From Halegenticoccus tardaugens (lineage in GTDB: Archaea; Halobacteriota; Halobacteria; Halobacteriales; Haloferacaceae), in the NCBI RefSeq assembly GCF_004116405.1, contig NZ_SDIC01000005.1, forward strand, positions 124,001 through 188,000: 64,000 nucleotides of DNA, read 5' to 3'. Below are positions 6,365 through 31,876 of this stretch, in pieces (within the stretch, counting starts at the first letter, position 1; each line of letters opens with the position of its first letter). The notes under the pieces were generated by a model. That model saw nothing but the letters and a program-made list of their open reading frames with translations, searched no databases and was not told the DNA's origin. The translations under genes were made by a program, and so were the position numbers.

Positions 6365-7694
6365 CTATCGACCCACGAAGGCAACTTGCGGGTTCGTGCG
6401 CTCCTCGTTGGAACAAGAGCGTGGTGACTCTGACCAGTCGTGGTCGTTCCACTTGAGGCGCACAGGCCGTTCCATCGGCCGTGCTACGTCCGTCTGCCGT
6501 CTCAGGAACGTCTTGCTTGCCGTGAGGTCCGCGTGGCCCTCGAAGTGGTTCGAGAGACCAAAGGTCTCTCGTCATCACGAAAGGCGCTCCGCGCCTTTCG
6601 AACGACCGCACGGACACGTCAGCGTGTCTCGGTGGCGCGTCGTCCGGTCGGTCGACCCGCACTGCGGACACTCTTGGCTTGTCCACGCTTCCGAGCGAAC
6701 TTCGACCGTCATACCGTACTCCTCGGCGGTACACGCGAGTCGGTCGATGAACGCTCGGAACGTCCAGAAGTTGTGCGTCTTGGCGTTCGCTTCGACCGAC
6801 CAATGCGTATCGAGTACGTCCGTTAACGCCCCGACGTACACCGTGGAGACGCCTTCGGCGTGCAACCGTTCGATAAGGTCGCGGGCGAGTGCGTCTTGGG
6901 CGTGGTCGCGGCGTCTCGTCCGTCGTCGGTACAGCGAGCGTATCCGGTGACTGCTGTACCGGCCGTCGTCCAAGAGCGACTGCAACCGGGCGATTTTTCG
7001 CGTCGTCTCGCGGAACCGCTCGAACAGGTCGCGTCCTTCGTACAGCAGTTGCGTGCCGGTCGTGGTCGTACAGGCGACGAGGTTGTTCGCACCAATATCC
7101 AGCGCGGCGGTTTCGTCCGCCAGTGGGTGTGCCAGTCGAGAAGTGTCGATAGTGACTGGCTGAAAGGCCCTGAATGCCTGTGCGTTCTCGTCGTAGTACA
7201 GTTCTAACCGGCCCTGTTTGTCGTACTCCTTCCAGTTGGGGTCGCCTCGGACTTCGACCCGGAGGCGTTCCTGTCGTCCAAGCCCGTACTCGTCTTTCAG
7301 GTCGTGGCCGACGAGAATTTCGAGCCGGGAGTATTCGCCCCACTCGACGGAGTACGACGTGTTTCGGATGTACGTGCGGAGTTCGCGGCCGTCCTCGACG
7401 TTGCCCCAGAAGCCGGGCTTGCCGTTGGCTTCGCCCTTCTTTTGGGCGTAAAGAACGATCGCCACGCTTCGCGGTTCTTGCGTTCGATTTGCTGAACGGT
7501 CGAAGCCCCGAGCGTGCCGCCATAGCGCCCGCGATACTCGCTGCTGTCTCACACGTGTCTGGGTCGGCGTAGTTCTCGCGGCGCTCGTAGTTGATTTCGT
7601 TCCAGAGTGCGGCAGAAGCGTCCAACAGGCGCTGAAGCAACTCCTCGTCCGCGTCGGACTGAGGAACCACGTCGAACGTGTTGGTCCGCTTCAT
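6365..7694 (-). pseudogene. tnpB: tnpB RNA-guided endonuclease, broken (copy 1)
   Basis: A TnpB-family reading frame disrupted several times. The N-terminus ([27 protein letters not shown]) is followed by a frame change near 7560, a TGA where relatives have Trp, and a second frame change before [11 protein letters not shown]. The body then reads well: Ruv[28 protein letters not shown], and the zinc finger CPQCGSTD...LTCPCG. A 60-bp double hairpin with two in-frame TGA codons (6545-6604) splits CPCG from [10 protein letters not shown], the RuvC-III motif. Where RuvC-II usually has Glu (V-E-D-L), this copy has Gly (V-G-A-L). The frame otherwise continues to the TAG at 6365. No intact protein can be made. 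Confidence 0.88.
6545..6604 (-). repeat. 60-bp double-hairpin insertion inside tnpB copy 1
   Basis: Compared with the other TnpB copy, exactly 60 bp are inserted between the codons for CPCG and FEGHADL. On the tnpB coding strand it reads CGTT, a 23-base hairpin CGAAAGGCGC-GGA-GCGCCTTTCG, TGATGA, a 21-base hairpin CGAGAGACC-TTT-GGTCTCTCG, and AACCAC. The layout and opening CGTTCGAAA are shared with the 60-bp insertion at 30384-30443. Confidence 0.85.
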
Positions 7695-7879: not shown

Positions 7880-7944
7880 GCGGCGTCGGCGGTTGTTCCA
7901 CAATTGTCGGATTCACGCCCGTCCCCATAACTCAGAGCGTTCTG

Positions 7945-7978
7945 GTGTGCGAACGAGGCGCGAAGCGTCTCGTCAACG
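7945..7978 (+). repeat. partial copy of the left-end hairpin module
   Basis: The sequence GTGTGCGAACGAGGCGC...GTCTCGTCAACG matches the second half of the hairpin pair at 17305-17340 (TGTGCGAACGAGACGC...GTCTCGTCAACG). Its first hairpin is missing. It probably marks the old left end of the element that begins at 6313. Confidence 0.55.
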
Positions 7979-17234: not shown

Positions 17235-17400
17235 AGCCCCCTTCCTCGCCGAGCGCCGAAGGCACGAGTAGGGAGGGAAGACAGCGTTCACAAGAGCTTC
17301 GCTCTTGTGTGCGAACGAGACGCTGCGCGTCTCGTCAACGTCGCGAGAAGCCGTAGGCTTCTGGTTGGCAGCCAGAACGCTTCCGCGTTCTGGCGACGCC
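17235..17400 (+). repeat. left end of an IS200/IS605-type element with four hairpins
   Basis: A terminal palindrome (CCCCTTCCTC...GTAGGGAGGG) is followed by four hairpins at 17289-17309 (loop TTC), 17315-17335, 17346-17362 and 17372-17393. The same series, almost base for base, lies on the other strand at 31762-31876, upstream of the tnpB element there. The hairpins form two pairs of about 60 bp each. Confidence 0.85.
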
Positions 17401-30282: not shown

Positions 30283-30287
30283 GTGAA

Positions 30288-31551
30288 CTATCCCACCCTC
30301 CCACTCGGGCTGACGCCATCGCTCTTGAAGGTGGGGCTTTCTGTTTCCACGACGCGCTTAACAGATTTGGACGTATCCACAGGCGTTCGAAAATCACTAC
30401 GTGATTTTCGCAGCCCCGCAGAAACGCGAAGCGTTTCTGAGGACGTTGATTCAGAGCGTCCCGCTCCTCACCGCTTGATACCGCGAAACAGAATATTCTA
30501 CGCCGCGTTCGCGTCTCTATCCGCCTCAAACCCACACGCCGGACACGAGTGTTCACGCACCCACAGCGGCTTGTCAGCCGAAACGCCGCACGACGCACAC
30601 TCTTTGACCCTCCCTCTCGGGTTCACGGCGACGAAGTACGTTCCTTCGCGGTCGCACTTGTATTCGAGCATCCGAAGGAACGTTCCCCACGCCGCGCCCG
30701 CCCGATTTCGAGAGTTGCCCGGTAGTTCGACCAACCCTTTCGCGTCCAAGTCCTCGACCGTCAAAAGGTCGTACTCGTGGGCGTAGTAGTTCGGGAGCTT
30801 GTGCAGGAAGTCCCAGCGTTTCTGTTTGAGGTCAGCGTGTCGCTCGGCCACGACTCGACGCTGGTTCTCCAAATTTGCAGCGCTGTGTACTTTGCGTGAG
30901 GGGTTGCGTTGAACGCGTTCCAACCGTTCGCGCTCGTCGGATAGGTTGAGCGACTTGACCGCCGTACCATCGGTGTCGTAGGCGTACTTGAGAATCCCCG
31001 CGTCGATGCCGACACACTTCTCGGGTTTCTCCGGTGGGTCGTCGGGAGTCTCGACGCCGAGGATGGCGTACCACTTGCCAGTCGGTTCCTGCTTGACCGT
31101 GACGGTCTTTATCTCGGCGTCGTCGGGGAGGTCACGGTAGAATGTGATGGGTATCTCACCGAGTTTCGAGAGCCACAGTTGCGTCCGCCCGCTCGTGTTC
31201 TTGAGTTTGAAGCCGGATTGGCTGTAGGTGAAACTGTGGTATTCGCCTGGTGCTTTCCATTTGAGGGTGCCGACGCGGTAGCCGTTCTCTTTGCGCCCCG
31301 AAGCGCCGGAGGTTGTCGTACAACCGCTGAACGGCTTTCTGAAGAACTTTCGAGTGAACGTGTTTCAGGTCACTCCACCACTTCTTGAGACTCGGCAGGA
31401 GTTTCTGCTCGGAGTACGCCGAGGTGTTGTCAGTTCGGTTGAGTCAGTGGAGGAAGTGGTTGTAGACCTGCCTACAAGTATCAACAGTCCACGCTAACTG
31501 CTCTGCGAGCGCGTCGGACGGTCGGAGCCGATACCTGTAGTTGTAGTTCAT
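30288..31551 (-). pseudogene. tnpB: tnpB RNA-guided endonuclease, broken (copy 3)
   Basis: Starts MNYNYRYRLRPSDALAEQLAWT, with an in-frame TGA after HFLH and a frame change in the NLRRFG region. The catalytic body is well kept: CVGIDAGILKYAYDTDG (RuvC-I), LLTVEDLDAKGLVELPG with the RuvC-II Glu present, and the zinc finger CASCGVSAD...CPACGFEADRDANAA (RuvC-III). After DANAA a TAG replaces Trp and a TGA follows GIKR. A 60-bp double hairpin (30384-30443) is inserted in frame near the C-terminus. The tail runs to a TAG at 30288, directly at the element end. Confidence 0.87.
30384..30443 (+). repeat. 60-bp double-hairpin insertion inside tnpB copy 3
   Basis: On the plus strand it reads CGTT, a 23-base hairpin CGAAAATCAC-TAC-GTGATTTTCG, CAGCCCCG, a 21-base hairpin CAGAAACGC-GAA-GCGTTTCTG, and AGGA, followed by a second CGTT. 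Removing it restores the tnpB tail across GAATCAACG and CCTGTGGATACG. The insertion is a multiple of three and keeps the frame. It shares length, layout and opening CGTTCGAAA with 6545-6604. Confidence 0.85.
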
Positions 31552-31761: not shown

Positions 31762-31876
31762 CGTCGCCAGAACGCGGAAGCGTTCTGGCTGCCAACCAGA
31801 AGCCTACGGCTTCTGGTGACGTTGACGAGACGCTGCGCGTCTCGTTCGCACGCAAGAGCTTCGCTCTTGTGAACGC
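31762..31876 (-). repeat. four-hairpin left-end module of element copy 3
   Basis: Hairpins at 31767-31788, 31796-31816, 31825-31845 and 31853-31869. Read on the minus strand the order and stems match 17289-17393 almost exactly. They form two consecutive pairs of about 60 bp, each pair resembling the 60-bp insertions inside tnpB. Confidence 0.85.

What the first reader, a model, noticed from the sequence alone, without database searches (positions are those of the whole stretch)
30384..30443. Second 60-bp double hairpin, in a different tnpB lineage, flanked by CGTT on both sides
The insert interrupts the tail of tnpB copy 3 and is flanked by CGTT on both sides, as a target duplication would be. 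It sits in the opposite orientation relative to tnpB compared with the copy at 6545. Since this tnpB is not closely related to copy 1, independent insertion is the simplest reading.
Basis: partly seen in the sequence, partly recalled or inferred. Interest (0 to 1): 0.7.

Follow-up and report, generated by a model that had tools for sequence, protein, structure and literature searches.

The report
Haloarchaeal mobile double-hairpin DNA element
The 60 bases are one copy of a tiny mobile DNA element, two hairpins and almost nothing else, that recurs across salt-loving archaea and keeps landing in the genes and guide-RNA regions of TnpB transposons; what moves it is unknown.

Summary
At 30384-30443 two perfect hairpins (9 and 10 bp, 3-nt loops) sit in the tail of a decayed tnpB, with CGTT on both sides. 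The empty site exists: 22 of 32 tnpB relatives in this genome lack exactly these 60 bp and 10 carry them, scattered over the tnpB tree (8 changes; at least 6 forced). So it is an insertion unit, but not a recent one in copy 3, and the CGTT repeat is not a target duplication. In other copies the left flank varies (AATG, ACCG, TACG, CACG) while the right end stays AACG or GACG; one CGTT is target, the other is the element's own end. The element belongs to a widespread family of about 53-62 bp: TC-hairpin-linker-hairpin-AACG, inserted at RNCG^YC, with strongly covarying stems (15 of 20 pairs). It occurs in 32 of 40 relatives searched; all titles shown by a scan of 84,980 species are haloarchaea. 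It has hit many separate sites in tnpB genes and IS605 end palindromes. This tail site was hit by at least three subtypes; there it lies in a predicted guide-RNA loop, almost always in frame. The mobiliser is unknown; Y1 TnpA is not consistently present.

The parts
30384..30443 (-). 60-bp double-hairpin element, read TCC...AACG on the - strand, same strand as tnpB
   Evidence: R1 82.7 bits, R2 77.9 bits; empty sites in relatives
30419..30439 (-). hairpin 1: 9-bp stem CAGAAACGC/GCGTTTCTG, loop TTC
   Evidence: family covariation
30388..30410 (-). hairpin 2: 10-bp stem CGAAAATCAC/GTGATTTTCG, loop GTA
   Evidence: family covariation
30384..30387 (-). element's own 3' end AACG (CGTT on +)
   Evidence: AACG at the right end of 109 of 131 copies whatever the left flank
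30444..30447 (-). target AACG, one instance of the RNCG^YC target; not duplicated
   Evidence: target logo over 80 distinct sites; varying left flanks
30330..31477 (-). tnpB copy 3, decayed (stop at 30498-30500, frameshift), IS200/IS605 type; the stretch includes the insert
   Evidence: G000:C10:154330-155298 and 155277-155477, 67% to P0001; PF07282 E=1.4e-18
30283..30383 (-). 3' part of the tnpB tail, presumed omegaRNA and right end (...GGGTGGGATAGTTCAC)
   Evidence: block shared with all relatives, variable DNA beyond TAGTTCAC; omegaRNA role inferred
31762..31819 (-). double-hairpin element of the TCA subtype in the leader of the same IS, second of a head-to-tail pair
   Evidence: R2 44.2 bits, E=5.6e-10
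31820..31872 (-). double-hairpin element, first of the head-to-tail pair (junction CAACG|TCACC)
   Evidence: R2 40.7 bits, E=5.1e-9
6545..6604 (+). divergent member (GTGGTTCGA...GAACG) inside tnpB copy 1, antisense to it
   Evidence: R2 37.6 bits, E=3.4e-8; empty relative L071, 83.7% over 203 bp

Best explanation
This is one copy of a non-autonomous mobile element of about 53-62 bp, widespread in haloarchaea and built of two hairpins with conserved single-stranded joints: a TC start, a GGC-type linker and an AACG end. Shown: it inserts 3' of CG, at sites with consensus RNCG^YC, keeps the target's CG and brings its own AACG, so the apparent CGTT duplication is target plus element end. Shown: it has hit many sites, notably in tnpB genes and IS605 end palindromes, and this tnpB tail site was hit by at least three subtypes. 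Shown for the window copy: its subtype is old in this tnpB lineage and patchily present, by spread with the transposon plus recombination, loss or re-insertion (not separable here). Predicted: the tail site lies in the apical loop of an omegaRNA hairpin whose closing stems are unchanged by the insert. With lengths of 57 or 60 bp that keep the reading frame, TnpB and its RNA can probably survive the insertion. Inferred: a trans-acting enzyme moves it as a folded single strand, as IS200/IS605 or REP elements are moved. The enzyme is unknown, and a canonical Y1 TnpA is not consistently present.
For: Empty/filled alleles at one exact site in own genome. Further distinct sites with empty relatives: tnpB N-terminus L079/L303 93% over 200 bp; inside tnpB L165/L065 93.5%; copy-1 N-terminus L172/window 89.5%; DANA site L082/L242 92%; IS leader L088/L239 95%. 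Removing the insert restores TnpB reading frames in L078, L079 and L090. Stems covary: 15 of 20 pairs change on both sides, 96.8% of cells paired, covariation 0.50 against 0.17 shuffled and at most 0.08 slid. Ends: AACG 109/131, left CG 104/131; 37 of 55 distinct unforced sites have left CG against a 13.6% background. Head-to-tail copies joined AACG|TC. Present in 32 of 40 relatives; all 80 titles shown from the GTDB scan are haloarchaea. Tail site: 32 copies, 15 genomes, several subtypes; length a multiple of 3 in 31/32 against 98/204 elsewhere, in-frame stop in 1/32 against 91/204; closing stems kept. Halorussus halophilus: the element lies inside an annotated TnpB CDS.
Against: No autonomous parent or mobiliser was found. 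Five genomes with 8 or more copies have no Y1 transposase at E<=1e-5, and two genomes with three Y1 hits have no copies. In this genome the window's subtype was seen only at the tail site, so its own recent mobility is not shown. Mantel tests on 10 filled copies are weak and do not separate re-insertion from recombination. Copies in the Halorubrum-like genome G014 sit inside a larger conserved intergenic palindrome and may have spread with it. Frame counts use related sequences, so the Fisher p value is too small. OmegaRNA boundaries are inferred.
Confidence: 0.8

Rival explanations
1. The double hairpin is an intrinsic, ancestral part of this tnpB family's omegaRNA scaffold that some copies have lost, for example by slippage between the AACG repeats.
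For: Same position in many relatives and genera; subtype T1 is nearest to other tail-site copies, not to other sites; it folds into the RNA without disturbing it; presence in 10 of 32 paralogs could be losses.
Against: The same family sits at many unrelated sites, including other parts of tnpB, IS leaders and end palindromes. Different subtypes occupy the tail site, and T2/T3 copies there are as close or closer to copies at other sites. Empty sites often read AATG, ACTG or ACCG rather than AACG.
Confidence: 0.12
2. It is a MITE moved by a DDE transposase that makes a 4-bp target duplication (CGTT).
For: CGTT on both sides in the window copy and in nearly all other intact filled copies of this genome.
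Against: No terminal inverted repeats in this subtype. The right end is AACG/GACG whatever the left flank is (AATG, ACCG, TACG, CACG, CA). Filled L077 and empty L061 both read ACCG^CC.
Confidence: 0.03
3. It is a terminal-only relic of an IS200/IS605 element (PATE), i.e. left-end and right-end hairpins fused by core deletion and moved in trans by Y1 TnpA.
For: Two hairpins, target left unduplicated on one side, own cleavage-like end on the other. Haloquadratum has 52-bp terminal-only elements thought to be mobile (PMC3119063). Y1 transposases are in this genome.
Against: The hairpins found near the tnpA genes here (such as CCCACGACTTCAGTCGTGGG) do not match; no significant R1 match near tnpA except the tnpB-tail copy of L010. 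Genomes with 8-21 copies and no Y1 hit exist; rank correlation is weak (rho 0.33 for all 40, 0.26 and p=0.16 for 31 more complete genomes).
Confidence: 0.25
4. Patchy presence in this genome comes only from recombination between tnpB tails, not from element movement (this concerns the local pattern and is compatible with the family being mobile elsewhere).
For: Body, upstream, insert and downstream distances are only weakly correlated, so tails are mosaic; all copies of this subtype seen in the genome are at the same site.
Against: L007 and L062 match at 98.5% over 200 bp on both flanks yet differ by the insert, so any conversion tract must be short; insertions at other sites need another process.
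Confidence: 0.4

Closest known systems
Small mobile repeats (SMR-A, SMR-B) of Haloquadratum walsbyi (PMC3119063)
   Same: Haloarchaeal, no genes, no target duplication, preferentially inserted in IS605-type transposons and PATEs within near-terminal palindromes, mobiliser unknown.
   Different: SMR-A are about 110 bp (one SMR-B family 80 bp) and have prominent terminal inverted repeats; these are about 53-62 bp, two hairpins, and this subtype has no inverted termini.
PATEs, terminal-only forms (HqIRS46, ISHwa23, 52 bp; PMC3119063)
   Same: Size, palindromes at both ends, no target duplication, suspected mobility.
   Different: Those derive from known IS605 ends by core deletion; no parent IS with these hairpins was found here, and Y1 transposase is not consistently present.
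REP/BIME/REPIN elements with RAYT transposases (PMC3733652, PMC3116915)
   Same: Short hairpins, often paired, conserved unpaired tag next to the stem, many copies, partly intragenic.
   Different: No GTAG tag; the two hairpins are different, in fixed order and joined by a conserved linker; the GTAG/CGTC survey names no archaeal phylum in the passages read.
Rickettsia palindromic elements (via review PMC10969869)
   Same: Palindromic insertions inside genes that keep the reading frame.
   Different: RPEs are about 150 bp and bacterial; these hit mainly tnpB/IS605 DNA and are in frame mainly at the tail site.
Double-hairpin elements of Allomyces mitochondria (cited in PMC7218506)
   Same: Two-hairpin architecture and evidence for mobility.
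   Different: Mitochondrial, no known sequence relation; not compared by sequence here.

Membership tests
SMR (Haloquadratum small mobile repeats) | terminal inverted repeats | tested here: not met
   Window subtype starts TCC and ends AACG, not inverted; only the 6545 type has GTGGTTCGA/TCGAACGAC ends
SMR (Haloquadratum small mobile repeats) | no target duplication | tested here: met
SMR (Haloquadratum small mobile repeats) | targets IS605/PATE elements, including near-terminal palindromes | tested here: met
   31 of 131 inside and 24 within 400 bp of tnpB/tnpA homology; end palindromes in L085, L086, L099, L100, L102, L152, L154
SMR (Haloquadratum small mobile repeats) | sequence relation to HqIRS42/43/55/40/41 | not testable with these tools
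   supplementary tables could not be read
IS200/IS605-derived PATE | end palindromes shared with an IS605 element | tested here: not met
   (11 tnpA loci of this genome only)
IS200/IS605-derived PATE | Y1 TnpA available in the genome | tested here: inconclusive
   present here, absent at E<=1e-5 from five genomes with 8 or more copies
REP/REPIN | GTAG tetranucleotide at the hairpin foot and adjacent RAYT gene | tested here: not met
   no conserved GTAG tag in alignments A1, A4 or the 131 copies; no Y1 gene in several carriers
DDE-type MITE | terminal inverted repeats plus target duplication | tested here: not met
intrinsic omegaRNA scaffold element | conserved in all members of the tnpB family | tested here: not met
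   22 of 32 relatives lack it
known structured RNA (Rfam) | match above gathering score | tested here: not met

The most novel reading that the evidence does not exclude
A previously undescribed, haloarchaea-wide class of minimal DNA transposons that are nothing but two recognition hairpins, moved as folded single strands by an as yet unidentified enzyme, and adapted to live inside omegaRNA loops and TnpB reading frames without inactivating them.
Probability: 0.25. Interest if true: 0.85.

Novelty: new variant of a known kind. Interest (0 to 1): 0.62.

Why it matters
Short palindromic repeats are common in prokaryotes, but how those without a dedicated transposase move is an open question. The Haloquadratum authors called the mechanism of their small mobile repeats enigmatic. 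This family gives precise ends, a target consensus, dozens of filled/empty allele pairs, and named type strains that carry it, so the question becomes testable. Its repeated landing in one loop of the TnpB guide RNA, nearly always in frame, suggests where natural omegaRNAs tolerate insertions, which also interests people who engineer TnpB.

Tried and rejected
Target duplication: rejected, see rival 2. A fixed omegaRNA part: rejected from empty sites and other insertion sites. A single ancestral insertion with drift: rejected for the site as a whole because several subtypes occupy it; not rejected for subtype T1. Y1 TnpA as obligatory mobiliser: not supported. An IS parent near tnpA genes: none found. 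A bulge-helix-bulge intron: considered by eye only; no complementary flanks of that form were seen. Rfam: no match. Phage collection: no match with the window's 60 bp; viral contigs: no match with the exact family pattern. A regular-expression filled/empty call was faulty and was replaced. A fuzzy search for empty sites timed out and was replaced by blastn. MAFFT alignment A4 mis-registers the stems, so the model-based alignment A5 was used. Alignment A3 contains opposite-strand matches of the same elements and was discarded.

Full report
WHAT IS THERE. The window is part of a 4.89-Mb genome (G000:C10:124001-188000); its tnpB and element relatives are in haloarchaea. At 30384-30443, exactly as reported, lie 60 bp made of two perfect hairpins. 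Read on the - strand, which is also the tnpB strand, they are TCCT-CAGAAACGC/ttc/GCGTTTCTG-CGGGGCTG-CGAAAATCAC/gta/GTGATTTTCG-AACG. Folding is far stronger than in shuffles, as RNA (z -5.1) and as DNA (z -5.3). tnpB copy 3 is IS200/IS605-type (PF07282) and already broken by a stop at 30498-30500 and a frameshift.

EMPTY SITE. A protein of the same tnpB lineage finds about 30 substantial relatives in this genome. Their tails align without ambiguity. Filled copies read GAATCAACG-[60 bp ending AACG]-CCTGTGGAGACTGCG; empty ones read, for example, GAATCAACGCCTGTGGAGACTGCG. Of 32 copies with enough sequence, 10 are filled and 22 empty, and presence is scattered over the tnpB tree: 8 changes, at least 6 forced by well-supported branches, against 8.8 for shuffled labels. 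L007 (filled) and L062 (empty) are 98.5% identical over 200 bp of flank.

NOT A TARGET DUPLICATION. A covariance model of 12 copies (R1) and a broader one of 18 (R2) were built; R2 found the family in 32 of 40 related genomes at E<=1e-5. In 131 copies the right end is AACG in 109 and the left flank CG in 104. Over 80 distinct sites the target is RNCG^YC; among 55 distinct sites where CG was not part of the search, 37 have left CG against a dinucleotide background of 13.6%. At this very tnpB site other genomes have left flanks AATG, ACCG, TACG or CACG while the right end remains AACG or GACG, and filled L077 and empty L061 share ACCG^CC with no repeat. One CGTT in the window is thus target and the other is the element's end. 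Tandem copies join as AACG|TC, which resembles the target consensus.

STRUCTURE IS CONSERVED, STEM SEQUENCE IS NOT. In the 18-sequence alignment 15 of 20 pairs change on both sides, 96.8% of cells pair, and the covariation score is 0.50 against 0.17 in shuffles and at most 0.08 when partners are slid. That alignment was fitted to the structure, so the share of paired cells is biased upward; the contrast with shuffled and slid controls is still large. The conserved parts are the TC start, the foot CAGAA, a GGC-type linker and the AACG end.

IT MOVES, OR HAS MOVED. Removing the insert restores TnpB reading frames at the RuvC-I motif (GIDL|GVN, L078), the N-terminus (L079) and a C-terminal tail (L090). 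Empty relatives with 88-95% identity exist at several of these and other sites; among them, window copy 1 is the empty allele for L172. Several insertions lie inside end palindromes of IS605-type elements (L085, L086, L099, L100, L102, L152, L154). Of 131 copies, 31 are inside and 24 within 400 bp of tnpB/tnpA homology, a lower bound because gene-less IS remnants are missed. The rest include intergenic copies, some in a larger conserved palindrome.

THE TAIL SITE IS A RECURRENT TARGET. Thirty-two tail-site copies in 15 genomes fall into several subtypes. T1 (GGGCTGCGAAAATC, the window's) is closest to other tail-site copies and so seems old there; T2 (TGTGCGAACGAGAGC) and T3 (TGTGCGAACGAATCGC) copies are as close or closer to copies at other sites, which points to repeated arrival. 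Lengths there are 57 or 60, a multiple of 3 in 31 of 32 against 98 of 204 elsewhere, and an in-frame stop occurs in 1 of 32 against 91 of 204. Because copies are related, the nominal p value (3e-8) is optimistic. In the folded RNA the site is the apical loop of a hairpin whose closing stems are the same with and without insert. Halorussus halophilus carries the element inside an annotated 429-aa TnpB. Haloarchaeal tnpB tails are transcribed as omegaRNAs (PMC12558985); that this tail is one is inferred.

DISTRIBUTION. This does not prove absence elsewhere. Viral contigs gave none with the exact pattern, phages none with the window's 60 bp.

MECHANISM. Asymmetric ends, lack of inverted termini in this subtype, an unduplicated target and structure-level conservation fit recognition of a folded single strand, as in IS200/IS605 and REP systems. 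This step is inferred. A canonical Y1 transposase is not consistently present: G007, G008, G014, G017 and G027 have 8-21 copies and no hit at E<=1e-5, while G015 and G035 have three Y1 hits and no copies. Copies in such genomes could be fossils. No autonomous parent was found.

WHAT CANNOT BE SAID. For the window's own subtype in this genome, re-insertion, recombination between tails and precise loss cannot be separated. No transposition was observed. The literature library is partial; the nearest description is the small mobile repeats of Haloquadratum (PMC3119063), whose sequences could not be compared.

Noticed in passing
window 31762-31872: Two head-to-tail double-hairpin elements in the leader of the same IS as tnpB copy 3, at a site (GATACAGCG^CCGCAC) that is also filled in many other genomes.
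   Followed up: partly
window 7922-7978 and 17285-17398: Further family members: one in a GATTCACGCCCG^CC context near tnpB copy 1, and two adjacent, oppositely oriented matches at 17285-17337 (-) and 17341-17398 (+).
   Followed up: partly
window 6545-6604: The 6545 copy is a divergent subtype with inverted termini GTGGTTCGA/TCGAACGAC and a TCATCA linker; it carries in-frame stops in tnpB copy 1, and its empty site is seen in L071.
   Followed up: partly
L001-L012, alignment A1: The 3-nt loops occur in both orientations (GGT/ACC, TTC/GAA, GTA/TAC) between otherwise unchanged stems, as if hairpin tips flip.
   Followed up: no
L155-L158, L118, L139, L142, L179: In Halorubrum-like genomes the element sits inside a larger intergenic palindrome with fairly constant ends (GAAGCCCC...CCCCTTCGAGTCCCACCC) and variable arms; no Rfam match.
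   Followed up: partly
L133-L138 (G033): Clusters and tandem arrays of the element, several copies in a row; 34 matches in a 1.9-Mb genome.
   Followed up: no
L078/L231 and L079/L252/L257: The same tnpB positions are hit in different genomes, at the N-terminal site by different subtypes, which suggests strong site preference.
   Followed up: partly
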